Both the position numbers and the translations under genes were made by a program. Source: a virus. From it: a stretch of 22,950 nt of DNA. Shown in pieces: positions 5,931 to 20,879 of this stretch. Below the pieces are notes generated by a model that was not told the DNA's origin, did no database searches, and saw nothing but the letters and a program-made list of their open reading frames with translations. Where the stretch lies: positions 1-22,950 of the IMG/VR virus record IMGVR_UViG_3300037862_000031; one strand, given 5' to 3'. How positions within the stretch are numbered: position 1 is the first letter of the stretch; each line of letters starts with the position of its first letter.

Positions 5931-5958
5931 CTTAGTGCTTAGTGCTTAGTGCTTAGTA
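5931..5958 (-). repeat. Tandem heptanucleotide repeat at the capsid gene stop
   Basis: Forward strand CTTAGTG occurs three times in tandem (5931-5951) followed by a variant CTTAGTA (5952-5958). The last copy contains the TAA stop of the major capsid gene. On the mRNA this is a run of CACTAAG units in the 3' spacer. It is probably a slippage-derived microsatellite; no function is evident. Confidence 0.85.
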
Positions 5959-7941
5959 CTCAACCACTGACGGAGCCACGCCACCGAGAGTGTCGCGGAG
6001 AGCAGCAGCAGAACCGTTGACATTGATAGTCGACGTGATTGACAGCGACTCAATACCGACGAATGCAAGACCCTCGAAGGTCTCCACAAACATCTTGTAG
6101 TCGTTCGTACCAACCAGACCTGAATCACGAATGATACCCAGGTCCAGAGTTCCACCATCAAGGAACAAGAAGCTACCCTCAGCAAAGAGGAGCCACGTGA
6201 ACGTGTCAGGGAACTCAGCAAGTGCACCGGTAGCCTGAGCACCAAAAGCGTTCCCGTCGAGCGTAGCCGTCATGGTGACGTTGCTCGAAGCCAGGTAGCC
6301 ATTGATGTTGTTCTCAGTAACACCGAGCTGGTTGTCGCCAGGCATAGCAAGCGCCAGGTCAGCAGCCATTGCTTCATACACCCAAGCGGGCACAATCGAG
6401 CGAAGCTGGGTGCGAGGGTCAATGCGGTGGCGGCTACGGTATGCAGCAGCGGCACGCTTGACCTGGACCAGGAAGTCCCGAGCGAATCCAATAACTGAAG
6501 TCGTGGTGACAGCAGTCGACGCGGCGTTCATCTTGGCGAGCAGAGTAAGCTCAGCAAGACGCGCGTGCTGGATGAAGCCAAGCTCGTTGTGACGAGCAAC
6601 AAGCTCCGGGTATGCACGGGCGAGAAGGTTGCCATACTGAAGCTGCAGAGTCACAGCATCGAGAAGGGCTTCGCGCTCAACAGCACCTGCAACAACAAGC
6701 TCGTTCTTAACGAGACCCGGTGCAGCAGCAGTGATGTCATTGGCATTGGTCCACACGCCAGTTGCAGCGACATAGTCGGTCAGCACAGGCGGGGCAATGA
6801 AACGCATGCCACCACGGTCGGCCTGGAACTTAGGCAGGCTCTCCTTGACGGGACGAGCGTCAGTACCAAAACCGAAAATGTCATAGTTGACAGGCAGCGG
6901 CGTACGGTAGCCACCAGAAGCAACAAGCGCCTCGGGGCCGACAACAGCATCAATCTTGCGCGAGTTCATGTCACTGTCAGTGTTAAGAACTCGGCTTTCA
7001 GGATACTCGGTGGAGAACGATGCAACAATGTGCTGTTCCCCATCTCCACCGTTGACACGGCGAAGAGCGTGAAGTCGCTTCGAGAAAGCCTCGGCAACTT
7101 CGTGAGTGTTGGATAGGGTGCTGCCTGCGGTGTAACCAGGAATGTCAGCGCCAGCCGTAATTGCGACGGGAGCCTCGACTACTTTGGCTACAGGGCGACG
7201 GTCAGCGGGAGCCTCGAAAACTCCGTCTGCTGCGGCGGTCACTGGTGCCTCTTCCTGCGCCTCTGGCGCAATATTTGTTTCTTCGATGTTTGAGGCTTCT
7301 GCCTCGTCCGCTGTCTCAGTAGCAGCTTCTGCTGTTTCCTCAACTTCGGAGAATGTTTCCGCAGACTCGACAGATGCTTCGTCTTCGTCTTCAACGGTCA
7401 CAGGTGCGTCATCGGCAGGCTCGTCCATAGGGGCGGAAGCTTCCATTTCTTCAATGTAAGACTCCTTCCCTGCGCCGAACTCAGCAGAATCATCTGCAAC
7501 CTCAGAGACGGGTGCCTCTTCGACTGCAAACTCCTGCGAAACCTCAGCATCAACAACCTGCGGGGTTTCAACGGAGAACTCTGCTTTTTCTTCTTCCTCT
7601 TCAGCAGGAACCTCGGCTTCGGTGTCCTCCGACATCTCCTTCTCAGAGTCGTCTTCAGTCACCTCTTCCATAGGCTCATCCATGTCCTCAGCACCGTACA
7701 CTCGTGATGCTGCCTCTGCTGCACGTGCAGAAAGCTCTTCAGCTTCTGCCGCACGGCGTGAGACCTCACCGCGAACGGTGTCTAGCATGTCAGCTAGCTG
7801 AGTCATAGACTCTACTGTCGTGGAAGTGGGGGCTTCGCCCTCAACCGATTCAAATTCGCTGACAATGCTATTCTGAAGCTCCGTGACTTGTTCGTCATTA
7901 AGATCAGAAAGCTGGTCAAGTTGCGACTTGATGGTATCCAC
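5953..7941 (-). CDS. Major capsid protein with fused acidic scaffold-like N-terminus
   Basis: From the GTG at 7941 this is 662 aa. The start is set by a near-perfect GGAGGAGG four bases upstream; a longer frame from 8010 lacks such a site and crosses a hairpin. Residues 1-80 are helical/coiled-coil (VDTIKSQLDQLSDLNDEQ, VRGEVSRRAAEAEELSARAA). Residues about 85-240 are strongly Glu/Asp/Ala-rich and probably disordered. The HK97-type capsid part begins near 250 and includes GYRTPLPVNYDIFGFGT, RFIAPPVLTDYVAATGVW (about 380-397), the long helix region LARAYPELVARHNELGF (440-456), VPAWVYEAMAADLALAMPG (517-535) and a C-terminal beta part. The N-terminus probably serves as an internal scaffold (delta domain) removed by the protease encoded just upstream. 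Confidence 0.85.
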   Translation of the reverse strand: MDTIKSQLDQLSDLNDEQVTELQNSIVSEFESVEGEAPTSTTVESMTQLADMLDTVRGEVSRRAAEAEELSARAAEAASRVYGAEDMDEPMEEVTEDDSEKEMSEDTEAEVPAEEEEEKAEFSVETPQVVDAEVSQEFAVEEAPVSEVADDSAEFGAGKESYIEEMEASAPMDEPADDAPVTVEDEDEASVESAETFSEVEETAEAATETADEAEASNIEETNIAPEAQEEAPVTAAADGVFEAPADRRPVAKVVEAPVAITAGADIPGYTAGSTLSNTHEVAEAFSKRLHALRRVNGGDGEQHIVASFSTEYPESRVLNTDSDMNSRKIDAVVGPEALVASGGYRTPLPVNYDIFGFGTDARPVKESLPKFQADRGGMRFIAPPVLTDYVAATGVWTNANDITAAAPGLVKNELVVAGAVEREALLDAVTLQLQYGNLLARAYPELVARHNELGFIQHARLAELTLLAKMNAASTAVTTTSVIGFARDFLVQVKRAAAAYRSRHRIDPRTQLRSIVPAWVYEAMAADLALAMPGDNQLGVTENNINGYLASSNVTMTATLDGNAFGAQATGALAEFPDTFTWLLFAEGSFLFLDGGTLDLGIIRDSGLVGTNDYKMFVETFEGLAFVGIESLSITSTINVNGSAAALRDTLGGVAPSVVEY

Positions 7942-7945
7942 TGTA

Positions 7946-7953
7946 CCTCCTCC
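7946..7953 (-). promoter_or_regulatory. Strong ribosome binding site defining capsid GTG start
   Basis: The minus strand reads GGAGGAGG, then TACA, then GTG. This is the best Shine-Dalgarno match among the starts examined. It fixes the capsid start at 7941 and not at the upstream in-frame ATG at 8010. Confidence 0.8.
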
Positions 7954-7966
7954 GGGCCAGTTAGTT

Positions 7967-7985
7967 CGACTGAACGATTCAGTCG
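7967..7985 (-). promoter_or_regulatory. Hairpin in capsid gene leader
   Basis: A perfect 8-bp inverted repeat (CGACTGAA / TTCAGTCG) with a 3-base loop lies about 25 bases upstream of the capsid GTG. No T-run follows, so it is not a terminator. It could be an mRNA-stabilising or processing structure, or a protein-binding palindrome. Confidence 0.5.
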
Positions 7986-8068
7986 TTCGTGATTGGGGAA
8001 TCTGAGGCAAGGGACTTACACGAAGAAATTCGTACAGGCACTCGACCCATTAACTATTATTGCATAAA

Positions 8069-8090
8069 TGTTACGTTAGGAGCCGTAACA
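8069..8090 (-). promoter_or_regulatory. Small hairpin over the protease gene stop
   Basis: Minus strand TGTTACG and CGTAACA form a 7-bp stem with an 8-base loop, containing the TAA stop of the protease gene. It is followed by TTTAT, so a weak attenuator between protease and capsid genes is possible. The T-run is too short to call a terminator. Confidence 0.3.
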
Positions 8091-11000
8091 ATTTGTTTAA
8101 TTCTGCAGAAACTTCTGCCTGATTAAACATATCTCCGCCAGACATAAAACTACGCAACTTCTGAGTAGCTTCACGCGACTCATCCGTACCAATTTTATCT
8201 TCTACACGTTCGATAAACTCTTGAGTCAATTCCTGCAAACGAGGAGGCAAATCGCTAAACTTAACTTTCTGCGCCTGATTGCTAAACGGCAAAGGCAAGT
8301 TCGCAATTGTTCGACCCAAATCTGTCGTCGCACTGCGAACGTTTACAATTGAATCAGCATTAAGCGCGCCGTCATCCAAACTATCAATCGTGCTAATTAG
8401 TTTGTTTGCAGACTCTGTCGCCTGCTCATAGTCGCCCGAGTTGCCGAGAAGCTTTTCGGTCTCCGCAATCTGATTAATAGCATCCTGGTTACCGGAAACA
8501 CCTAGGTTTTTCTTCAAACGAGCAAGAATGTCGCGGAAACGCCCCTGTGAATCACGAGGTTGCGTATCCGGCGTAAAGCGCCCCTCTTCCGGCTCATCAG
8601 CAGTCTCAACTTCAGTTTCAACGTCAGATTCAACAGCAGGAGTCGGCGTAGTATCCGCAATCTCCTCCGCCATTTTACGAAGTCGCTCCTCTTCCGTCTC
8701 CGCACCAGCAGCAACCCGAGCACGCAAAGACGCAACCGTAGCAACAAGCTCCGCACGCTTCGCAGGCGTAGTATACGCACCATTAGAAAGTGATGCAAAC
8801 CGTTCCACAAGGCTCTCAGCCTTAGCAGAAAGAAGCGCATCACGAGCAGCACGAGCCGGAGCCATACGAGCCCTCAAAGACGTAGCCTGAGCCGCAAGTT
8901 CACTGTTCGTAAAGTGTTCCAACATTTCCAAACGACCCGAAAGTTCCTTCAACGGATCGCTCTTCAACTTCGCCAACGTCGCCGCACCAGCAGCAACCAA
9001 CGCCATAACCTGACCAGAAGCAACACGAGCACGCGCAACCGGGAACCCAGGAACATTTACCTGACAAACCGCAACAAGCTCCAACGAATTGTTAATCGGA
9101 CGCCAATCGCCCGACGGAGCAGAAGCACGCAACACGCGAATCTGCTCAGGAGTCGTACCAGGACGCAACGCCCCAGCAACCCAAATACCAAAATCATCCT
9201 CGCCAGCATGCACATCAGCAATAGCACTAGCAGTATTATCGTAATGCTGAGCAGCCTGCGCGGCACTCGCCATAATATCCGCATGCCCGCCAGCCAACGT
9301 AAGCTGGCCTACAGCAATATCGCCGCCCTCTTCAGTGCGAAGAACTCCAGTATTGAAGTACTTATAACCGCTACGAGAACGAGGAGGCCGCGTACCAAAA
9401 GACATACCAATGTGGTCCATGTCCCACGCCGCAATGTGGCCATAAACTTGACCCTCATCCGTAATAGTCAAAGGAGTCGGACCAGACAGCGGCGGCTGTG
9501 CAAACCACGCCTTAGACGGCGTTACAGGAATAGAACTGGCAACATAACCGCACGCGACAAGAGCCATCGCATCAAGCGGGTCCAACTCATCCATGTAAAT
9601 TCCATCCGGAATCATACTGTCCTCCTCGAAAGTTTCGGGCTCATCAATAAAAATTAGGCATTCTTGGAAAGAAGGCTTTGATACAATTGTAACCGCCATA
9701 ATGCGAGCCTTATTGATGACAATTTTTTCTTTCTTAATGGTCTTACCATCATCGTCAGACTCGTCATCAAACTCAATAGGTACAGACTCAGCTTCAAAAC
9801 GGTCCATATCTGCAGAAACACCACGCAGGAAACCATTACGAACAAGACGCTCAGCCTCAGTGCCAAACACACCAGTATCAAACACTCCAACAGCATTACC
9901 CATGCCGTCTTCAGTGCGTTCCATAAAGTCAATACGGCCCACAACAACTGATCCGTTGTGTCCGTCAGCCGTCCTAAGCTGCCACAAAAGCGGAAGCGGC
10001 AACTCGCGCAACAGCAAGACACCCTTCTCAATCATGCGACCATCGCCGGACTCTACACCCTCAGGGATGACAACTGGAATGCGGAACCGCGCACCATGCT
10101 CCGGAGCACCCGCAGCCGCAACAACACCAAACATACGCTCGCGCGCTTCAGCAGCCGCCGCACGCAAACCCGCCTGCGAAATCATCTGATCGGTAGAAAG
10201 CAAAAGGTCAGAACTAAACACGTTAGCCCCGCCACGGCGACCAAAGATTTGACGTTGACGAGCATCACCTGTCCACTGTCCCGTAATTTCCTTATGCCGA
10301 AGAGCACAGTAGCCCTTAGCCCGCGTACCCATGTACTTAGACAAGTATCGAACGCAACGCGTCCAATCGCCGCCCGTACCCCAACGGATTTTTCCAGCAC
10401 CCGCACCATACAACCAATAACGGCGCAGCCTTTCAGCGCCACCACGATTACGATCCGCGCCGCCAGCAGCCGTCAAAGGGTTACCCCACAAAACAACAAG
10501 CTCATGATCTATCGGCTGAACAGAAGCAGTAATAACGTTGTCCACCTGAGCCAAAACATCATTCAACGTTTCCGAATCCAACGGAACAACCGGAGGTGGT
10601 GTGGCAGAGTTTAAATTGTTGAGAACCTGTGCATCCCTAATCCACTTACCGTCCCGACGAACATACGTCATCGGAGCATTCGACTGCGTAGACGCAGGAA
10701 CCAAAGCAATAAGCTCCAAAACAGCGCGAGGATCGTCAGAATCAATCTCCGCCATATAAATAGGCTGAACATCAGAAGTAGTCGGCGTAACCGTCTTCTC
10801 CTTCTGCCCCGACGACGTAATCGGGTTGTACCACATACGATTAGGGTACGACGAACTGTCCGTACGGTTTAACCAGTCCTTAAGCAAAGGATGGTCATAC
10901 GCATCCACCGTAAGCTTCTTACCAGCAACCCGCTCAGCCTCAGCGCCGCCCCGCCCCTTATTAAGACTGTTGCGGCCCTGAACAGAGACAGGAGCCGAAG

Positions 11001-12393
11001 ACCCCGCCGGAATGAACTGATCTCGCTGAGACTTAACCCAAGCAGGCCAATCATTAATAACAGAATGCAAATCGTCTCGCGTCATCGCAGGCAACGTGCC
11101 CGGGATCTGAGCAACACTACGACCAATAGGCGTACGAGGCTCACCCAAAATACCAGTCAAGTCAACGCGAGGCACCTCAATAGGCGAACCAACCGGAATA
11201 GCAGAAGCAGCAGGAGCCGCCTTCGTCGTGTTGCCCGGAACCTTAACCGTTCGGCCACTCTCCAACGTAACCTCAACACTGAGATCACTCGGAGTAACAC
11301 GCGTAATCGTACCAATAGCGGCAGGATTGTCACCAACCATCACACGCGTACCCGACTTAGCAAACTTCCCCGAGCCGTCACGAACCTGCTTAGAAGCATT
11401 CTCCGAACGCTCCTCCTCAGAATAAATACCATCCCCAGGCGTACCACCAGCAGCAACAAGAACCTCTTGCAACAACTCGTCCTGCTCAGCCTGAATATAC
11501 AACAAAGCCTCATCAGTGTTGAGGTCTTCAATGCTGACAACATCAAAAGGGTTCACAGAAAGCTTTGCAGAAATCTGAACAGCAGAATCAGGATCGACAG
11601 GCACATGCGTCACATCGACAAGCTCATCGTCAAGCTCATCATCGTACGTCCAAATGTCTGCATCCTCCACAGACATATCATCCCAACCAGACCCGTCCCA
11701 CACATAAACCCGATTGTCAAAATCAATTTTATACAAACGGTCAATGCCGCCGCCCTCTAAACGAACGCGAGCAATAAACTCCGGACCATAAAAAGGCTCA
11801 TCGGTGTCAAGCGCCGCATCAGTTACTGCAGACGCAGTAGTTGCAACTTTCTTATTCTCACGTTCAACAATCGCACTCGCCCAACGCTGAGCGGCATCCC
11901 CGCCCCAAAGAGCCCAAGCAATACGACCATTCGACGGAAACCCCTCATCACCAGGAGTATAACCAGAAGCCTGCTTATCCACCTCATGACGCGGAAAATA
12001 CTTAGCAATATGGCGAACCTTGTCAAGACTAATCTGACCGCCCTTTGCCAGCTTTCGAGCACTGCCCAACCCTACAGGCGTTCCACCACGCTTAAACTCT
12101 TTGCGCCATGCCAAAGCTTTCTTAGCCTCAACCTGCGCCCCACGAGGAATCGTATACATTCGCCGTTCAGTGTCCTGAACAAACTCAACCTTACGCTCCA
12201 AAGCACCCAAAGACTCAGAAGCTAAACTAGCATCCAACTCAGTAAAAACACCCTCACTCCAACCACCGCTAGCAGTCAAAGCAGCAATATCACCAGAACG
12301 CACAACAACCCCTAAAGAGTTGTCGATAACAACGCCCTGTGTTTCGCCCGTAAACAGTAACAAGTCACCGTTTTGGCCGACAAATTCTGACAT
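8071..12393 (-). CDS. Giant capsid maturation protease (S78-like) with multiple flanking domains
   Basis: A 1440-aa protein, far longer than a stand-alone prohead protease. The protease fold is at about 770-920: FRIPVVIPEGV, then TADGHNGSVVVGRID (His812), GVFDTGVFGTEAERLV and GFLRGVSADMD (Ser860), matching the His and Ser of the herpes/HK97 S78 class. Upstream modules are NGRIAWALWGGDAAQRWA (about 155-172), RDGSGKFAKSG with an SH3-like strand set (338-386), a GEGAAKIRW-type unit (YGAGAGKIRWGTGGDWTRC, 662-680) and YCALRHKEITGQWTGD (695-710). A conserved downstream module (about 935-1125) includes YGHIAAWDMDHIGM, GEDDFGIWVAGALRP and VNVPGFPVAR. Residues 1140-1440 are helical and acidic. It probably cleaves the scaffold part of the adjacent capsid protein. 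ATG 12393 follows the previous stop by one base. Confidence 0.85.
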   Translation of the reverse strand: MSEFVGQNGDLLLFTGETQGVVIDNSLGVVVRSGDIAALTASGGWSEGVFTELDASLASESLGALERKVEFVQDTERRMYTIPRGAQVEAKKALAWRKEFKRGGTPVGLGSARKLAKGGQISLDKVRHIAKYFPRHEVDKQASGYTPGDEGFPSNGRIAWALWGGDAAQRWASAIVERENKKVATTASAVTDAALDTDEPFYGPEFIARVRLEGGGIDRLYKIDFDNRVYVWDGSGWDDMSVEDADIWTYDDELDDELVDVTHVPVDPDSAVQISAKLSVNPFDVVSIEDLNTDEALLYIQAEQDELLQEVLVAAGGTPGDGIYSEEERSENASKQVRDGSGKFAKSGTRVMVGDNPAAIGTITRVTPSDLSVEVTLESGRTVKVPGNTTKAAPAASAIPVGSPIEVPRVDLTGILGEPRTPIGRSVAQIPGTLPAMTRDDLHSVINDWPAWVKSQRDQFIPAGSSAPVSVQGRNSLNKGRGGAEAERVAGKKLTVDAYDHPLLKDWLNRTDSSSYPNRMWYNPITSSGQKEKTVTPTTSDVQPIYMAEIDSDDPRAVLELIALVPASTQSNAPMTYVRRDGKWIRDAQVLNNLNSATPPPVVPLDSETLNDVLAQVDNVITASVQPIDHELVVLWGNPLTAAGGADRNRGGAERLRRYWLYGAGAGKIRWGTGGDWTRCVRYLSKYMGTRAKGYCALRHKEITGQWTGDARQRQIFGRRGGANVFSSDLLLSTDQMISQAGLRAAAAEARERMFGVVAAAGAPEHGARFRIPVVIPEGVESGDGRMIEKGVLLLRELPLPLLWQLRTADGHNGSVVVGRIDFMERTEDGMGNAVGVFDTGVFGTEAERLVRNGFLRGVSADMDRFEAESVPIEFDDESDDDGKTIKKEKIVINKARIMAVTIVSKPSFQECLIFIDEPETFEEDSMIPDGIYMDELDPLDAMALVACGYVASSIPVTPSKAWFAQPPLSGPTPLTITDEGQVYGHIAAWDMDHIGMSFGTRPPRSRSGYKYFNTGVLRTEEGGDIAVGQLTLAGGHADIMASAAQAAQHYDNTASAIADVHAGEDDFGIWVAGALRPGTTPEQIRVLRASAPSGDWRPINNSLELVAVCQVNVPGFPVARARVASGQVMALVAAGAATLAKLKSDPLKELSGRLEMLEHFTNSELAAQATSLRARMAPARAARDALLSAKAESLVERFASLSNGAYTTPAKRAELVATVASLRARVAAGAETEEERLRKMAEEIADTTPTPAVESDVETEVETADEPEEGRFTPDTQPRDSQGRFRDILARLKKNLGVSGNQDAINQIAETEKLLGNSGDYEQATESANKLISTIDSLDDGALNADSIVNVRSATTDLGRTIANLPLPFSNQAQKVKFSDLPPRLQELTQEFIERVEDKIGTDESREATQKLRSFMSGGDMFNQAEVSAELNKLLRLLT

Positions 12394-12394
12394 A

Positions 12395-12973
12395 TTAACT
12401 CTCAGGGCTCTCTAGTTCGTACTCGCCAATGTCCTCAATAGACACGTAGTTGTTGTCATACAATTCAATAAAATCTTCAGCCGTAGCAGGATCAATTTCG
12501 ATAGACGACAAACCGTCAAGATCCTCAGAAGCAGACGAAAGCGACATCCACTCACCACTGACACGCAGGTACGAGCCCGCCCCGGCGTTCCGATAAACAA
12601 GAGCCGCAATAAAAGGCGAACCGTCAACCACATATGCGATCAGAGTTTCGTTCTCCACGAAAGTTCCTTTCTTGTTTTTAGTCAAACCTTCAAGAACTGA
12701 AATAGGGAGAAGGATAGAGTATTTGGACAGATGAAAACCATCCTCCTCACGAAAAGACCTGAGCTTATAGAGGACATTATCTGAACTAAATATAATTCTA
12801 CCAGGAAGGTCAACCTTTGATCCCCTGTCAATAGTAAAAACTTGAACAGAATCGTCCCCCATAGTGAGATTCAAAACCTTAGAACGAGTAACCGAATATT
12901 CAACCACAACATCTGCAAGTCCCGGCTCCGCGTCAGACATCAACACTGCCGGAGTAGCTACATCAATTATCAC
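12395..12973 (-). CDS. Unknown 192-aa structural-operon protein
   Basis: It starts at GTG 12973, overlapping the stop of the giant upstream gene by 4 bases (GTGA), so translation is coupled. The N-terminal two thirds look beta-rich (ADVVVEYSVTRSKVLNLTM, SVQVFTIDRGSKVDLPGRI). The C-terminal part has SYLRVSGEWMSLS (about 134-146), then IEIDPATAEDFIELYDNN (158-175) and an acidic end (IEDIGEYELESPES). The C-terminal pattern YxRxxGxW...LD..T..D resembles a stretch of the neighbouring protease protein (residues about 576-619). No family recognised. Placement between the two giant head proteins suggests a partner or a detached domain of one of them. Confidence 0.75.
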   Translation of the reverse strand: MIIDVATPAVLMSDAEPGLADVVVEYSVTRSKVLNLTMGDDSVQVFTIDRGSKVDLPGRIIFSSDNVLYKLRSFREEDGFHLSKYSILLPISVLEGLTKNKKGTFVENETLIAYVVDGSPFIAALVYRNAGAGSYLRVSGEWMSLSSASEDLDGLSSIEIDPATAEDFIELYDNNYVSIEDIGEYELESPES

Positions 12974-15900
12974 AAGTACCGCCCAATCATACTTTCCATA
13001 TTCCGCATAATACCTCTATACCAATCACTACGGTTCATCGCAGCAAACGTGTCCTCCAAAGCAGCAAGACGCTGACGCACGCCAATAAGTTCAGCCTCCG
13101 TATACAAAGCCTTATCCTTGACAAGATTCCCTCTAACCATTGGGAATGCTATCTTACCAAACGGGCTAAGAGAGACTATGCCCATACCTGCGTTGTTCGC
13201 CAAACCGTTATCAATAGCTACAGGCTGACCGTCTTCTTTGATCATCCAGTTACCACGATGCCTATCACCATTACCTGCAAGCAAATCAAACAAGCCAATT
13301 GCACGAACATTCTTAGAAAAGCCGCTGGAAACCAACTCATCGAGCAACTCTGCGTCCTCTGCGCCCAGCATGCCGTTTGCCCGAATCCACTCTCGCGGTG
13401 CAACACCGTTGATGCGGTTCATCACAACAATAGACTCATCATCACGCAACCCAACAGTCAACCCCTCCATGCCCATAGCAGCCAACATTGCACCGCCCAA
13501 ATATTCAGCATCCCGCGTGTCCTTATCTGCGGCATACTTTACAAACACAGCACCAACCTCAGGGTCAGGGAACTCAGGATCAGAATAGTCAGCAGCAGGC
13601 TTTACAAACTGCACGCCACCGTTCTGTGCACCCCTGTTAATGTTGGCCTTCACGTCCCAACCTTCATTGAGAGCCGCCTCCAAAGCTTGAGCTTTTTCTG
13701 CATACCCCCCAAACCACTCAGCATCCGTCTCATCCGGATCAGGCTCATCAAAGTTCAAAGCATTAATTCTAGTAGGAGTCTCAAGTCCATACCAATCCGC
13801 AAAGTTGTCCTTAATTCTCTTCACGTTAAACACCGCAGGAGCCCGATCCAACCCAGATGCTTCCGTCTTAAAGTACGCTGTCACAGGCTCAAGAGTGTCA
13901 ACGTTTACACTAACAGTTTTAAGTTGACCGGGACGATCAGACCGACGACTGACCTCAATAACCTGAAAAGACCCACCAGCCGGAGAAGACACAATATCCC
14001 CAACGCGAACATTCTGAATCGACAGCGTCTTCAAAACTTGAAAACGATCCGCGATAGCTTTCACTCGAAGCTGCTGAGTTGTCAACGGACGCGCAATAGT
14101 AGTTCCCGGATCAACGCCAAGATTCTGCATAGCCGCAACAACATTTGCACGATCAGTATCCTTAGCCCCCAAAGCGCGAAGAATATCCTCCACCTGCATA
14201 GCCTCATCCGGAACCCACTCAGGAAGAGACAGCAAAGCACTAATCAATTCTTTAGCACGATCCGTATTCAACTCTTCAAGGACAGACTCCAAATCGGCAT
14301 CAGACAAAACCGAATTATCTGGACCTTTAGCCATAACCAAACGGCGAATAGCTTGCTTTTCCGTGTCCTCAGCAGCAAGCGGCTTAGCACGGAAAACATC
14401 AAACGTCATCGGAAACATTAAAGGCAGAACATACGTTTTAATCTTATAATCATCGAAATCATCAATAATCATTTCAAGTTCAAGGTTGCCGTCAACTATT
14501 GTCTTCTTAGTGATCTTGGCATAAACATCCAAATTACTATCATTCTGAACAACAGTCACATCACCAACAGCAACATCCGCCGCACGAACCTTAAAAGCAT
14601 CAGCGTTAGCAACTTCTGCCACAAAATCGAAACGCGTCTGCGGAACAAGACCCTGCGCCTCCGGAGCAACATCCGGACTCTCCAACAAACCGCTAGGAGC
14701 AACCTTACGAATCAAAGGCCTCTTAGGAGCGGCAGGCGCGCGAGGCTGAGGGGCCGGAGCGTTCGGGTCAGGCAAATTAAAGTCGCCAGCCTGAGCCACC
14801 AGACGCTGATTTTCCTGAATCTCTTCACGCTTAGCAAAGAACGCATCCAAAGGCTCGCCCGGAGCAGCAAGACGCAGATTCGAAGCAACAAAAGGCCGAC
14901 CACGACTCTCCGGCTTCGGATCATTCTTCAACCGGTTATACTCCGGAAAAACAGCCTCAACATAATCGGTGTACTTATACTCACCATTAGGCATCAAAAC
15001 CTGTTCGGTATCCTTCAAACGACGAACAAAGCCCTCAAACACTTGCCCATACGTAGGGCTATTGGTACGCCAATCCGTCCACTGAACCGTATCGCCAGGC
15101 TTCAACGACTCACCGCCGCCGTAAGAAATGTGAGTAGGCCCCCCATCCCCAGGCATAGCGCGAGCCGCCTCCAACTGACTATCAATCAGCCCACGCTTCG
15201 CCGCCCGAGCACCTACACCATCCGGAAAAGACTTCTTCAGAATGTCAATAACGTTGCGACCGTTACGTGCCTCTTTAGCCAAATGCTCAACCATATCCCG
15301 AACAGCATTACGCAACTCAGAAGCCGAAACAGCATTAGTAACCGCATCCGAGTCAGCGTCAGCCTGGAACTTAGCATCCTCGCCGCCCAAAGCTTCACGA
15401 TTCTTCATACGCGTAATAGCACGGTACGGGTCACGAGCAAACAGCCACTGAAGAGCCGAACCCATCTTACCCGTCAACGCTTTATAACTGTGCGCCTCGC
15501 CATAAACCTTTGCAGCAACAATAGAACCATCAGGCATAACAACACGACGGTACACAAAGAACCGCTCGTCAGGAGTACGACGCACAACAACATCAAACTT
15601 GCGGCCATTCACCTCGCGAGAAGCAATAACAATGTCACCATTAGCAAGACGACGGTTATTCGGGAAGTTAGCAAGAATGTCCTCAATAACAAGGTTCAAA
15701 TCCTCCTCATCCGCAGGAGCAAGCTTGCGCGCCTGCAGATCCTTATTACCCGGAAGCGCAGGAATGTCCGTGTTGCGCGGTTCCGTACGCTTATTTGGAC
15801 GTTGCGGCTGCAAACCCAACCAAGACATGAAATTATCAAACGCTTCCAACGCCATAGGCCGCTGCAAACGCTCTTCAATAACAGCAAAGTCTTCAGAATC

Positions 15901-18900
15901 AAGACGACCGCGAGCAGCCGAAAGCATAATGCCGATCTTAGTCTCGCCAATCGTCAACGCCGCGCCAGGAGCCGAAGGAATTGCCGGTAACCGGTCACCA
16001 TCACCACTATCCTCCGACGCAGGCGCATCCGGGACAACAACCAAAGACACATCCGCCGGAACACTAACAGGCGTATTGTCTTCATCAACAAACGAATTAG
16101 GACCCGTCTTAGTCAAAACCTTGTCACTGCCCTCAGGGCTGACACGCGTGTTGTTGGGCAAAGACTCGCGACCCAAACCCGTGTTAACAACCTGAGGCTC
16201 AGGCGCAGGGACAACCCCAGCAGGGCGAGCAAGAGTAGCTGGGACACTAACTAAAGTAATCTCCTCGCCATTCTCCATACGACGCTCAGGTGAGAACTGA
16301 AAAAGTTGACGCGCCGCATCAATACTCGAAAGACCATCCTCAGGGATAAAACGACCAACCTGAATAAACGTTCCACGAAGATCTTTCTGTGCACGAGAAA
16401 TGTCAAGACCATGCCGCACACCCGAAGGTCCGCTAAGAGACTCAACAATGCTACCCATCGGCAACATAGCAAGATCCTCACGCGTCAAAACACGACCAGG
16501 AACCAAACTGTCAAGGAAATCATTACGAACCTTGTCCGCAGCAATTTTAGCTTCGCGAGCCAACGCAATTTGAGCATTAACTGCCTCCTGATCAACCTCA
16601 GGAGACACAATAGGAGCCGAAGCAAACGGAACAGGATCAGGCTTATCTAAATCAACAATTGCTTTCTGTTCCCGCTCGTACCCATCGCGACGTGCCTTCT
16701 CAGCCGCGCGAGGCATATCCTCAAAGCGCCCAGCCATAGCCTCCATCTGATTAGCATTCCACTGAAGGTTAACCTCAAGAAGCTCTAAAATCTCCTCCGA
16801 CGTTGCACCCTCAAGGATGCGACGCTCAAGATTACCGTCAGCATCATAAGGCCGAATTGCACTAATAGCCTCCCGCTGACGAACCGTAACTGCAGCCGGA
16901 GCCTGCTCAGCATCAAAGTCGGGCGGCTCTGGCGTAAACTGAGGTTGCGCATCCATAACCTCATTAGTTGAAGGCACGTTTGCCTCCGCCTCAGGCGCAG
17001 CAGGAGCCGACGCCTGAACCTCAACGTAAAAGTTTCGAGGCGAATCAAAATCTTTACTCGGATAGATAATAACAGGACTAATAGAACCATCCTGCATAAC
17101 ACGGAACCACTCGTTGCCCACCTTCTGGAAAGACATCTCATCAAAGCTCTGCTTATGAGTACGCTTAACCCGCGACCCCTCAGGAGCACTCTCAAGCTCT
17201 GCCAACGTGGGAACAAGAGGATTAACAGCCCAACCTGCAGCAGCAGGAGCCTCATCGGGGGCCGTGTTGCGAATCTCAGCGGCAAGCTCCTCATCAGAAA
17301 GGTCTGCAACAGGAGTTGCACTAGGCTCTGAAACATCTTCTGCGTTAGGCTCGGGAGCCTCTACATTCGGAGTTTCGTCGCTTGGGCCGACAGCGTCACT
17401 AATTTCAGCTTTAAGCTCATCGTCAGAAAGATCTGCGGCTGGCGTAACGCTTGGCTCGACCGCAGGAGCCTCAGGGATCTCCGCTACGGGCTCAGGGGTG
17501 GCCTCAGGGGTGTCAGTGCCAACCGGAGCCTCAACAGGCTCAGGAGCGGCATCAGCAGGCGCATCAAAGTTATCAAGCCGCGCCTGAATATCATCACGCG
17601 TCGCCTCAATATCCTCAAGATCAGGACCAGGCCGTTCCGGATTAAACCGGTCAAGCTGACGATCTAAAAACCCTACTCGCTGTTCGAGTCCAGCTCGGTC
17701 ACTGGGGATGGGCTGCCCGAGACCGTCGAGTTCTGGCTCTGGCTCTCCATCTCCGCCTTTACCAGACTCTCGTGCATCGGAGTCAACCACAGGAGAATCT
17801 CCTCCTTCGACATCTCCTGCAGATTCGCCGGAACCGGGAGCACCGTCAACTTGTCTTTCATTATCTCCACCCTCACTAGAAGTACCACCCAAAGAAACAT
17901 CACGATCATTCGCCATATCGCGAATAACAGACTGCCCACCATCACGGCCCAACCGCGTAGCCTCACCAAGATCAGCCACCTGCTGAACAACATCAAAAGA
18001 CACCAAACCAGAATCACGGTCATGCCAAACACTCAAACGCTTACCACCATCACCGCCAAGCTCAACCCTATTATCTTCAACATACTCAGCAAGAGCCTCT
18101 AAACCCTGCGGGCTATAAAACTCCGCAGCAGAAATCTTCTTCTCAAAACCATCAACACCAACAAGATAACCCTCATTAACAAGATTACCCGTAACCGTAT
18201 CCAACGACAAACGACCACGCGCACGCACCCGCTCCAACAAATTCGGGTACTCCTGCGAACCATCCTCATTAACAGGCTCCACAGGCTGACCATCACGCTG
18301 ACCATCCGGAAGCGAAACACCATCCACCTCAGCATCCAACCGATCCGCAACCCGCAACGCATCAGCCCAACTAAAAGCCTCCTGAGCAGGCTCATCATTG
18401 TCCAAACGATTAACCATAAACCGGTTATCGTCCATCTCAACAATTTCCAACTCACCATCACCCGTAACAAAACGGTTAGAAACATTCTCATCACGAGCCC
18501 AACCCAGCGGCGCATCCAAACGCACAATCTCAGACTCGTTCTGAATCTCCTCCGCAAGCCGAGAACCCAAAGCATTACCCGCAGCATCCTGCCCAACGAC
18601 AATACCGCGAGCCTTCAACATTTCAGGACTCAACGTGGCAAGAATCTCTAGCGCATTAGAGCTAGAAACCTGATAAAACCCGTCAGGCAACCCAGAAGGA
18701 TCATCCTTAACGTAAACCTGACCAAACTCTGCAGTCTCAGCAGTACCAATAAAGACACCATTCAAGCTAACTACACGCCCATTAGCGCGGCGGATCTTAA
18801 ACTTAAGTCCGCGACCCATCTCAGCAAAACGCCCCGCCCTATCGCGAAACTGAAGCTTCGCACGAGCCGAACGAGCAGCGCGACTATTACCAATAGCAGC

Positions 18901-18927
18901 AAGAAGGGCAAAAAACTTTTCGGGCAC
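12970..18927 (-). CDS. Giant 1985-aa head-region protein with C-terminal kinase-like domain
   Basis: It starts at GTG 18927 after a TAGGAG site and lies after the portal, where MuF-type head proteins usually sit, though I see no MuF motif. Residues 26-40 carry a QFRDRAGRFAEMGRG motif. About 340-560 is acidic Pro/Ala/Glu-rich and contains a duplication (PAADLSDDELKAEI at 496, PVADLSDEELAAEI at 539). Several SH3-like beta units follow (LKPGDTVQW near 1275, RAADVAVGDVTVV near 1448, IQNVRVGDIVSSP near 1637). The C-terminus (about 1755-1985) looks like a PI3/4-kinase or HipA-type kinase: VFVKYA (Lys1797), RDAEYLG (Glu1808), catalytic loop AGNGDRHRGNWMI (Asp1888, Asn1893) and metal-binding VAIDNGL (Asp1906). 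All key residues are present, so activity is plausible. Target unknown; virion location is inferred. Confidence 0.8.
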   Translation of the reverse strand: MPEKFFALLAAIGNSRAARSARAKLQFRDRAGRFAEMGRGLKFKIRRANGRVVSLNGVFIGTAETAEFGQVYVKDDPSGLPDGFYQVSSSNALEILATLSPEMLKARGIVVGQDAAGNALGSRLAEEIQNESEIVRLDAPLGWARDENVSNRFVTGDGELEIVEMDDNRFMVNRLDNDEPAQEAFSWADALRVADRLDAEVDGVSLPDGQRDGQPVEPVNEDGSQEYPNLLERVRARGRLSLDTVTGNLVNEGYLVGVDGFEKKISAAEFYSPQGLEALAEYVEDNRVELGGDGGKRLSVWHDRDSGLVSFDVVQQVADLGEATRLGRDGGQSVIRDMANDRDVSLGGTSSEGGDNERQVDGAPGSGESAGDVEGGDSPVVDSDARESGKGGDGEPEPELDGLGQPIPSDRAGLEQRVGFLDRQLDRFNPERPGPDLEDIEATRDDIQARLDNFDAPADAAPEPVEAPVGTDTPEATPEPVAEIPEAPAVEPSVTPAADLSDDELKAEISDAVGPSDETPNVEAPEPNAEDVSEPSATPVADLSDEELAAEIRNTAPDEAPAAAGWAVNPLVPTLAELESAPEGSRVKRTHKQSFDEMSFQKVGNEWFRVMQDGSISPVIIYPSKDFDSPRNFYVEVQASAPAAPEAEANVPSTNEVMDAQPQFTPEPPDFDAEQAPAAVTVRQREAISAIRPYDADGNLERRILEGATSEEILELLEVNLQWNANQMEAMAGRFEDMPRAAEKARRDGYEREQKAIVDLDKPDPVPFASAPIVSPEVDQEAVNAQIALAREAKIAADKVRNDFLDSLVPGRVLTREDLAMLPMGSIVESLSGPSGVRHGLDISRAQKDLRGTFIQVGRFIPEDGLSSIDAARQLFQFSPERRMENGEEITLVSVPATLARPAGVVPAPEPQVVNTGLGRESLPNNTRVSPEGSDKVLTKTGPNSFVDEDNTPVSVPADVSLVVVPDAPASEDSGDGDRLPAIPSAPGAALTIGETKIGIMLSAARGRLDSEDFAVIEERLQRPMALEAFDNFMSWLGLQPQRPNKRTEPRNTDIPALPGNKDLQARKLAPADEEDLNLVIEDILANFPNNRRLANGDIVIASREVNGRKFDVVVRRTPDERFFVYRRVVMPDGSIVAAKVYGEAHSYKALTGKMGSALQWLFARDPYRAITRMKNREALGGEDAKFQADADSDAVTNAVSASELRNAVRDMVEHLAKEARNGRNVIDILKKSFPDGVGARAAKRGLIDSQLEAARAMPGDGGPTHISYGGGESLKPGDTVQWTDWRTNSPTYGQVFEGFVRRLKDTEQVLMPNGEYKYTDYVEAVFPEYNRLKNDPKPESRGRPFVASNLRLAAPGEPLDAFFAKREEIQENQRLVAQAGDFNLPDPNAPAPQPRAPAAPKRPLIRKVAPSGLLESPDVAPEAQGLVPQTRFDFVAEVANADAFKVRAADVAVGDVTVVQNDSNLDVYAKITKKTIVDGNLELEMIIDDFDDYKIKTYVLPLMFPMTFDVFRAKPLAAEDTEKQAIRRLVMAKGPDNSVLSDADLESVLEELNTDRAKELISALLSLPEWVPDEAMQVEDILRALGAKDTDRANVVAAMQNLGVDPGTTIARPLTTQQLRVKAIADRFQVLKTLSIQNVRVGDIVSSPAGGSFQVIEVSRRSDRPGQLKTVSVNVDTLEPVTAYFKTEASGLDRAPAVFNVKRIKDNFADWYGLETPTRINALNFDEPDPDETDAEWFGGYAEKAQALEAALNEGWDVKANINRGAQNGGVQFVKPAADYSDPEFPDPEVGAVFVKYAADKDTRDAEYLGGAMLAAMGMEGLTVGLRDDESIVVMNRINGVAPREWIRANGMLGAEDAELLDELVSSGFSKNVRAIGLFDLLAGNGDRHRGNWMIKEDGQPVAIDNGLANNAGMGIVSLSPFGKIAFPMVRGNLVKDKALYTEAELIGVRQRLAALEDTFAAMNRSDWYRGIMRNMESMIGRYL

Positions 18928-19202: not shown

Positions 19203-20879
19203 TTAGACCTTTGGCTCAGCTAGCGGAAAAGGAGGCGCATCCTCACCCGGTTCAACAGGATCCGAACTTTCCGGAGGAGCTACTGCGGAGTCTACACCCT
19301 CGGCAGGTTCCGCAGACGGAACCTCACCAGCAAGCGCCTCAGCAATATTAGCCGGAACGGGAGCAACACTAGCCGCCTGAGACGCCGCACGAGCAGACGC
19401 AATCAACTCAGGAGCAATCGCCGTAAGAAGAGCCTCAGTAAGCTCAGGAGTGAAACTAGCCCGCTGAGTCAACAAACGCAACGCCAACTCCGTCGGATCC
19501 GGAGCATCCGTCTCCGAAAAACCATGCGCACGCCGCCACGTCTGACTCGAAATGGCCAACTTATCAAAACCAGAATCAGCATCCGACGCACGGTCATTAC
19601 GAGTAGCAACACTCGACGGGTCATACCAAACAACAACCTTAGAAACCTCAAGCTCAGAAAAACCAATACCACGCAAATACGGACGCAAATACACAACCGT
19701 CAAAGCATCAGAAATAAGCAACAACAACGGCTCAATATGCGCTTTGTAAAGTGATTCATCAATTTGCACAGCATTAGAATATTTAACCGACGCAAGACCC
19801 GTAACAACATCCTTAGGAATGTCGAGACCCTGCAAAATACGCTCCAAAACACGGTCAGAACGCTTAGCAAGCTCAGCATCAAAACTACGCTCAAACTTGA
19901 ACTGCTTAATCTTGTCACCCAAATCCGCAGGCCCACGAATAATCAACGGAACAACAGCCGAAGCCGACGACTCATCCGTAACCGGAGTCGTCATCGCATC
20001 AATAAGCTGCTCCTCAAACTCGTCAGCCGCCTCCTCAGGGAAAATCCCATCCTCATCCGCACCCACCATGTCCGGATCAATACCATTAGACGCAGACAAC
20101 CCATCCGGAATATACAACGCGCCAGCATTCAAACGAGACTTAGCCGTAGCACGGAACGTACGGTTGAGCAACAACAACTCTTCGCAAAGATCGAGGATAC
20201 CGCGAAGACTCGAATCAGGCTCATCCGAATAACGAGGATGCGAACGCCAAATGCGCCCCATAAACGACCCAACAGGCAAAGGAATAATATTACTAGCCGT
20301 CGCGCCAGGACCAAAAGCCGACCCAGACGTTTGACGACGCGAATTAACATAAAACTGGCCAGAATTATTCTGATGCAACTCATCAACCGAACGAATATCC
20401 CACGTTTCAGGCAACCCCGAACCAATACGCTCCGGAACCTGCACCAAATAACATTCACCCGTGACACTCAAATTCAACGCCGCATCACGCAACAACCCCG
20501 CCTGTCCGCCATACGCACTATCCAACCGAGACAAAGCCCGCTGAGCGGCCTCCGCCAACTTCGGATCAAAATCAGGAGACAAGTCCACGCCAACAGGAGC
20601 CTCAGAGGCATCATTCACAACCGCAGGATACAAACGAATACGAGAAACAATGTTAGCAACAAGCTGAAAAGAATACTTAATCTCACCAATAGCGTCGTAA
20701 TACTCCCACGCCTCCGACTGCCACTGAGCATCAGCAGAATTCTTACGGTCCTTAAAAAGCTCAGCCTCGCCCTTATCGTTCAACTTCACCTGCACAGCCG
20801 CCGCCGTCAACGGACGCGGCACGTTAAACGCCGCAGGCTTAATACTGTCGCCGTCAGATTCTTTTCTAAAAATTGCCAT
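19203..20879 (-). CDS. Portal protein
   Basis: A 558-aa protein starting MAIFRKESDGDSIKP at ATG 20879. The portal is the dodecameric ring through which DNA enters and leaves the head. Actinophage portal features are visible: SEAWEYYDAIGEIKYSFQL (about 55-73) followed by VANIVSRIRLYPAVV, LNLSVTGECYLVQVP (about 131-145), WDIRSVDELHQ, IWRSHPRYSDEPDSSLRG, the helical FDAELAKRSDRVLERILQG and LDIPKDVVTGLASVKYSNA, and YKAHIEPLLLLISDALT. The last 60 residues are an acidic Pro/Ala tail. Length is normal for the family. It starts 6 bases after the DUF1360-like gene. Confidence 0.92.
   Translation of the reverse strand: MAIFRKESDGDSIKPAAFNVPRPLTAAAVQVKLNDKGEAELFKDRKNSADAQWQSEAWEYYDAIGEIKYSFQLVANIVSRIRLYPAVVNDASEAPVGVDLSPDFDPKLAEAAQRALSRLDSAYGGQAGLLRDAALNLSVTGECYLVQVPERIGSGLPETWDIRSVDELHQNNSGQFYVNSRRQTSGSAFGPGATASNIIPLPVGSFMGRIWRSHPRYSDEPDSSLRGILDLCEELLLLNRTFRATAKSRLNAGALYIPDGLSASNGIDPDMVGADEDGIFPEEAADEFEEQLIDAMTTPVTDESSASAVVPLIIRGPADLGDKIKQFKFERSFDAELAKRSDRVLERILQGLDIPKDVVTGLASVKYSNAVQIDESLYKAHIEPLLLLISDALTVVYLRPYLRGIGFSELEVSKVVVWYDPSSVATRNDRASDADSGFDKLAISSQTWRRAHGFSETDAPDPTELALRLLTQRASFTPELTEALLTAIAPELIASARAASQAASVAPVPANIAEALAGEVPSAEPAEGVDSAVAPPESSDPVEPGEDAPPFPLAEPKV

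What the first reader, a model, noticed from the sequence alone, without database searches (positions are those of the whole stretch)
12970..13660. Kinase-like domain at the end of a giant phage head-region protein
Seen: residues about 1755-1985 contain, in order, a Lys in a beta strand (VFVKYA), a Glu, a GNGDRHRGN catalytic loop and an AIDNG metal motif. Known: this order fits the PI3/4-kinase and HipA-like atypical kinase folds. Inference: since the gene sits between portal and protease, the protein may be packaged and injected, acting as a kinase on host or virion proteins at the start of infection, by analogy with injected modifying enzymes such as T4 Alt. I do not know of a characterised example in this setting.
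Basis: partly seen in the sequence, partly recalled or inferred. Interest (0 to 1): 0.75.

Follow-up and report, generated by a model that had tools for sequence, protein, structure and literature searches.

The report
Kinase tail on giant phage-head protein
A giant protein made by a phage of actinobacteria-type hosts ends in a genuine, intact kinase domain (PI3/PI4-kinase superfamily) that comes and goes between relatives and is probably loaded into the virus head and delivered into the host cell with the DNA, although delivery and target are still unproven.

Summary
In detail: residues 1744-1981 of the 1985-aa post-portal protein form a PI3/PI4-kinase-superfamily domain. Pfam PF00454 is above its cut-off. 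K1797, E1808, D1888-R-H-x-x-N1893 and D1906 are all present and conserved in 19 relatives. A moderate-confidence AlphaFold2 model matches PI4K-II, CtkA, Fam20C and Vps34 (Z 10-12). The same C-terminal kinase occurs in two other phages, on proteins that share this protein's N-terminus. In three Microbacterium phages related to Pumpernickel the same protein stops just before it, so the kinase is a detachable module. About 60 homologous proteins share the N-terminal ~160 aa but end in other enzymes: ADP-ribosyltransferases, ArdC/zincin peptidases, Toprim primase, UvrD helicase. This is the polyvalent-protein pattern (Iyer 2017). A short N-terminal element (Q-x-R-D-x-x-G-R-F-A-x-M-G) also occurs in the capsid protease/scaffold protein, so it may be a head-packaging address. 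Elsewhere, about 14 of 21 distinct viral contig groups with such kinases carry them beside portal, MuF or capsid genes, five of them fused to MuF. The best reading is a virion-packaged effector kinase delivered at infection. Packaging, injection and substrate are inferred. It is a new variant of a known kind.

The parts
12970..18927 (-). giant post-portal protein, 1985 aa, GTG start
   Evidence: ORF; lies between portal and protease genes; homologues in the same slot in many phages
18388..18927 (-). N-terminal module, residues 1-180: two helices plus SH3-like beta barrel, shared by about 60 giant proteins
   Evidence: AF2 model pLDDT 86.3
18814..18870 (-). candidate head-packaging element SARAKLQFRDRAGRFAEMG, residues 20-38
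   Evidence: R 98%, D 94%, G 100%, Q 90% in 53 sequences; also in protease/scaffold proteins
14767..15807 (-). middle module of unknown function, residues about 1041-1387, shared with Microbacterium phage homologues with and without kinase
   Evidence: BLASTP 24-28% identity
12985..13698 (-). PI3/PI4-kinase-superfamily kinase domain, residues 1744-1981
   Evidence: PF00454; family profile; fold match
13537..13539 (-). K1797, predicted ATP-binding lysine (VFVKYA)
   Evidence: at least 90% conserved in A3; position
13504..13506 (-). E1808, predicted alpha-C glutamate
   Evidence: E or its column at least 90% conserved in A1/A3; position
13249..13275 (-). catalytic loop GNGDRHRGN, residues 1885-1893 (D1888, H1890, N1893)
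   Evidence: D, R, H, N invariant in A3
13204..13218 (-). metal-binding motif AIDNG, residues 1904-1908 (D1906)
   Evidence: Asp invariant in A3
12395..12973 (-). 192-aa protein overlapping the giant gene's stop; unknown function
   Evidence: ORF; no family
8071..12393 (-). head maturation protease / scaffold-like protein, 1440 aa
   Evidence: phrog_859 1.5e-87, phrog_18402 1.9e-53
11119..11421 (-). segment of the protease/scaffold protein with the same element (KQVRDGSGKFAKSG) and a following beta-rich stretch
   Evidence: profile-profile match to the giant's N-terminal module, prob 85%, E 5.8e-6
19203..20879 (-). portal protein, 558 aa
   Evidence: phrog_776 2.2e-102
5953..8010 (-). major head protein, 685 aa
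   Evidence: phrog_777 2.4e-76

Best explanation
The protein is a polyvalent-type cargo protein of the phage head. Its N-terminal module, with the Q-x-R-D-x-x-G-R-F-A-x-x-G element and an SH3-like barrel, recruits it into the procapsid during assembly, probably through the same partner that holds the protease/scaffold protein. It is ejected with the DNA. Its detachable C-terminal domain, an active PI3/PI4-, HipA- and Fam20-like kinase, then phosphorylates a host target at the start of infection; protein serine/threonine is more likely than lipid. Shown here: kinase fold and intact active-site residues, late-gene position, shared N-terminus with swapped C-terminal enzymes, and gain/loss of the kinase. 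Inferred: packaging, ejection, activity and target.
For: PF00454 above cut-off. Active-site residues conserved in 19 divergent domains. Model matches PI4K-II (Z 12.4), CtkA (12.0), Fam20C (11.2) and Vps34 (10.5). The kinase sits at the extreme C-terminus of the post-portal protein in three distinct phages. A3Wally, Zooman and Cece homologues end before it. About 60 ORFs share the N-terminus while C-termini are ART, MPTase-PolyVal/ArdC-N, Toprim, UvrD or kinase; Forza gp80 in the same slot is an ART. The element is shared with the protease/scaffold protein and rare elsewhere. MuF-kinase fusions and portal-adjacent kinases occur in unrelated phages.
Against: No virion proteomics. The AF2 kinase model is only moderate (mean pLDDT 58.8). 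The kinase is rare in this protein family (PF00454 in 3 of 48 related records, one of them almost identical to the window). Only one catalytic domain is recognisable in the window protein. Ejecting a protein of about 215 kDa needs unfolding or processing, which was not tested.
Confidence: 0.66

Rival explanations
1. The kinase is made late and stays in the infected cell, altering the envelope or a host protein to block superinfection, as Benler et al. 2021 proposed for the HipA-like kinase between portal and MCP of Gratiaviridae.
For: Late-operon position; published reading of a comparable kinase in the same slot (PMC8008677).
Against: The kinase is fused in one chain to a module shared with the capsid protease/scaffold protein, and in other phages to MuF, which is a head protein. 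Neither fusion is needed for a cytosolic immunity factor.
Confidence: 0.15
2. The kinase acts inside the capsid on virion or assembly proteins (maturation, DNA release), not on the host.
For: Position among head genes; the shared element suggests contact with scaffold/protease.
Against: Related Microbacterium phages have the same protein without the kinase, so it is dispensable for assembly there; other members carry host-directed enzymes in its place.
Confidence: 0.12
3. It is a pseudokinase or binding module that keeps the fold but not catalysis.
For: Weak sequence identity to characterised kinases; Fam20A pseudokinase is among the profile hits.
Against: K, E, D, N and the metal Asp are conserved in all three giant-protein copies and almost all 19 relatives.
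Confidence: 0.07

Closest known systems
Polyvalent proteins (Iyer et al. 2017, PMC5512222)
   Same: Giant phage proteins by virion genes, shared and swapped enzymatic domains (ART, MPTase-PolyVal, ArdC-N, primase) predicted to be injected
   Different: Their kinase domain is a different group of the Ser/Thr/Tyr superfamily that lost its C-terminal subdomain; no PI3/PI4- or HipA-type domain is named in the main text
HipA-family kinase between portal and MCP of Gratiaviridae (Benler et al. 2021, PMC8008677)
   Same: Kinase of the HipA/PI3K-like side of the superfamily in the same genome slot
   Different: Described in Bacteroidetes-type gut phages, read as late immunity; not reported there as part of a giant head-cargo protein
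MuF polymorphic toxins (Jamet et al. 2017, PMC5576092)
   Same: Head-associated constant N-terminus with variable C-terminal effector
   Different: The window protein has no MuF domain, and that paper's text does not mention kinases
Microbacterium phage Pumpernickel gp82
   Same: Same slot, 50% identical N-terminus, C-terminal kinase
   Different: Annotated only as hypothetical protein
T4 Alt with capsid targeting sequence
   Same: Working analogy: enzyme targeted to the procapsid by a short N-terminal signal and injected
   Different: ADP-ribosyltransferase, unrelated sequence
H. pylori CtkA, PI4K type II, Fam20C, HipA
   Same: Kinase fold and active-site layout (first three)
   Different: Cellular enzymes; low identity (13-18%)

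Membership tests
PI3/PI4-kinase superfamily (Pfam PF00454) | Profile match above curated cut-off | tested here: met
   33.9 and 30.7 bits against 27.1
PI3/PI4-kinase superfamily (Pfam PF00454) | Catalytic Asp/His/Asn loop, metal Asp, ATP Lys and helix Glu | tested here: met
   K1797, E1808, D1888, H1890, N1893, D1906 conserved
PI3/PI4-kinase superfamily (Pfam PF00454) | Kinase fold of this superfamily | tested here: met
   Foldseek E 8.7e-5 to PI3K; VIA-align Z 12.4 to PI4K-II beta, from a moderate-confidence model
Phosphoinositide kinases | Phosphoinositide substrate | not testable with these tools
   needs biochemistry
HipA-like kinases | Match to HipA profiles | tested here: inconclusive
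   No HipA model matched the window at E<=1; relatives L110 and L111 match HipA_2
Polyvalent proteins (Iyer 2017) | Large protein encoded beside virion genes | tested here: met
   1985 aa, between portal and protease
Polyvalent proteins (Iyer 2017) | Two or more domains of disparate activity in one chain | tested here: inconclusive
   Only one catalytic domain recognised in the window protein; homologues with the same N-terminus carry ArdC-N, MPTase-PolyVal and others
Polyvalent proteins (Iyer 2017) | Injected into the host | not testable with these tools
   needs virion proteomics and translocation assay
Polyvalent-protein kinase group of Iyer 2017 | Loss of the kinase C-terminal subdomain | tested here: not met
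   About 75 residues with helices follow the metal Asp in the model; the only Pfam model matched is PF00454
MuF polymorphic toxins | MuF domain (PF04233) | tested here: not met
   Pfam scan of the full protein at E<=1 gave only PF00454

The most novel reading that the evidence does not exclude
PI3/PI4-kinase-like enzymes are a recurrent class of virion-delivered effectors in tailed phages, addressed to the capsid by a short portable element (R-D-x-x-G-R-F-A here, R-x-P-x-G-...-G-G-[QR]-[FW] in other lineages) that they share with scaffold/protease or other head cargo.
Probability: 0.4. Interest if true: 0.78.

Novelty: new variant of a known kind. Interest (0 to 1): 0.58.

Why it matters
If true, phages deliver ready-made kinases of the PI3K/HipA/Fam20 side of the superfamily into bacteria before any phage gene is expressed. 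That would be a protein-modification route parallel to T4 Alt, with a candidate packaging address that could be tested by fusing it to a reporter. It would also give an alternative reading for the HipA-like kinase reported between portal and capsid genes of gut phages. Pumpernickel (with kinase) and A3Wally, Zooman and Cece (without) are isolated Microbacterium phages, so the question is testable now.

Tried and rejected
Relatives of the window kinase by single-sequence search: only a near-identical contig (99.9% identical DNA), so no selection test was possible. The A4 and L109 queries found only themselves. The L115 and L111 kinases had no match in annotated phages. Foldseek of the N-terminal module gave only weak SH3/Tudor-like matches and small unnamed phage proteins, so no named fold was assigned. 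Motif order alone as proof of a kinase was rejected, because a loose ordered pattern turns up in 15 of 2000 shuffles. No paper on virion-packaged phage kinases of this type was found in the held library, which lacks most subscription journals.

Full report
WHAT IS THERE. The window is a whole viral contig of 22,950 bases. On the minus strand the order is portal (19203-20879), giant protein (12970-18927, 1985 aa), a 192-aa protein, a 1440-aa protease/scaffold-like protein and the major head protein. Pfam PF00454 matches above its cut-off. Motif order alone is not decisive: a loose ordered pattern occurs in 15 of 2000 shuffles, though the strict catalytic-loop-plus-metal string occurs in 0 of 5000.

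IT IS A KINASE FOLD. Nineteen domains from the window and related loci align with invariant D, R, H, N and metal D, and with K and E conserved in at least 90%. AlphaFold2 gave a moderate model (mean pLDDT 58.8, pTM 0.54; 64-85 by blocks from the hinge through the catalytic loop). Its best structural matches are all of one superfamily: PI4K-II beta (Z 12.4, 202 residues), CtkA (12.0), Fam20C (11.2), Vps34 (10.5), actin-fragmin kinase (9.9). Foldseek ranks PI3K and PI4K first (E 8.7e-5). The intact residues argue for an active enzyme. Nothing here decides between protein and lipid substrate; protein is favoured because the compact bacterial relatives HipA and CtkA, and Fam20C, act on proteins (established knowledge).

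THE KINASE IS A DETACHABLE MODULE. Searches found it at the extreme C-terminus of the post-portal protein of Microbacterium phage Pumpernickel (gp82) and of IMG/VR contig 3300028394_000214. Microbacterium phages A3Wally, Zooman and Cece have homologues of gp82 that are 51-56% identical over the first ~450-540 aa and 31-32% identical to about residue 1840, but they stop there and have no kinase match. Pumpernickel continues for about 395 residues, which include the kinase. The window protein aligns with the constant parts (residues 7-179 at 49-57%, and about 1041-1387 at 24-28%) and, beyond them, with Pumpernickel's extension (23% over 1626-1983).

THE PROTEIN FAMILY IS A CARGO FAMILY. In contigs with a related portal, some 60 ORFs share the N-terminal ~160 aa. 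Their sizes range up to at least 5,481 aa, and they often come two in a row. Of 34 C-termini scanned, four carry ArdC-N and four MPTase-PolyVal. Others carry ADP-ribosyltransferase domains, DnaG/Toprim, UvrD helicase, DUF3626 or PI3_PI4 kinase, and several more have HExxH motifs by eye. In Gordonia phage Forza the slot holds an ADP-ribosyltransferase. This is the architecture that Iyer et al. called polyvalent proteins (PMC5512222), predicted to be packaged and injected. Their kinase group is different: it lost the C-terminal subdomain.

A CANDIDATE PACKAGING ADDRESS. Just inside the N-terminus lies GNSxAARxARAxlQRRDrxGRFAeMG. In 53 sequences R, D, G and Q are 98, 94, 100 and 90% conserved. 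Outside the giants, the good matches of this profile fall in the downstream protease/scaffold proteins, including the window's own (about residue 337). The two profiles align at prob 85%, E 5.8e-6; segments were chosen because they carry the element, so this E-value is somewhat flattering. The N-terminal module is predicted with confidence (pLDDT 86.3) as two helices and an SH3-like barrel, without a specific known relative. By analogy with the T4 capsid targeting sequence (Mullaney and Black 1996, listed in PMC9958956), this could be the address that loads cargo into the procapsid. That is inference.

THE THEME RECURS. A profile scan of viral contigs gave 21 groups of distinct kinase-bearing contigs. 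In about 14 the kinase lies in the same gene as MuF or within about 5 kb of portal, MuF or major capsid gene on the same strand. Five groups are direct MuF-kinase fusions (L121/122, L123-126, L137, L138, and L146 with a weak MuF score), plus one in a Verrucomicrobia MAG (L115). L140-142 is another giant (2464 aa) with a C-terminal kinase 1.7 kb from a portal. No formal background rate was computed. In L111 and L129-132, kinase domains follow an R-x-P-x-G...GG[QR][FW] element: 12 of 55 kinase ORFs against 2 of 1446 others, duplicates not removed.

KNOWN AND NEW. A HipA-like kinase between portal and MCP was reported for five Gratiaviridae phages and read as late superinfection immunity (PMC8008677). 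MuF polymorphic toxins are known (PMC5576092). What I did not find in the held library is a PI3/PI4-type kinase as the C-terminal module of giant head-cargo proteins, its gain and loss among isolated phages, or the element shared with the protease/scaffold protein. Hence: new variant of a known kind.

LIMITS. No virion proteomics or activity data. The kinase is rare in this protein family (3 of 48 records, one nearly identical to the window). Many contigs are fragments. The host is inferred from isolated relatives that infect Microbacterium, Gordonia and another actinobacterium.

Noticed in passing
window 11119-11421 (-): The capsid protease/scaffold protein carries the same R-D-x-x-G-K-F-A-x-x-G element as the N-terminus of the giant protein.
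   Followed up: partly
L111 8578-18624; L129/L132: Tandem kinase genes behind the portal, with R-x-P-x-G-...-G-G-[QR]-[FW] elements before kinase domains; one 1266-aa non-kinase neighbour in L111 has four such elements.
   Followed up: partly
L110 9512-14191 and L108 6869-10546: Single proteins with four kinase domains (L110) and with a NUDIX domain plus three kinase domains (L108), in head-gene neighbourhoods.
   Followed up: partly
L100, L101 (one open frame of about 5480 aa), L094 (5051 aa), L095 (4801 aa): Related post-portal proteins of 4800 to at least 5480 aa, among the largest phage proteins; domains mostly unassigned.
   Followed up: no
L092, L093, L096, L097, L098, L103, L106, L050: Many relatives have two giant proteins in tandem after the portal, both with the N-terminal module.
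   Followed up: no
L148 7093-8928 (A3Wally gp84): A 611-aa protein without any Pfam match lies between portal and giant gene in A3Wally; Zooman gp69 is in the same place, absent in Pumpernickel and Cece.
   Followed up: partly
window 5953-8010 (-): The major head protein has a long acidic Glu/Ala-rich N-terminal region (about 200 aa) before the part that matches phrog_777.
   Followed up: no
window 14767-15807 (-): Residues 1041-1387 of the giant protein are a conserved middle module of unknown fold shared with homologues lacking the kinase.
   Followed up: no
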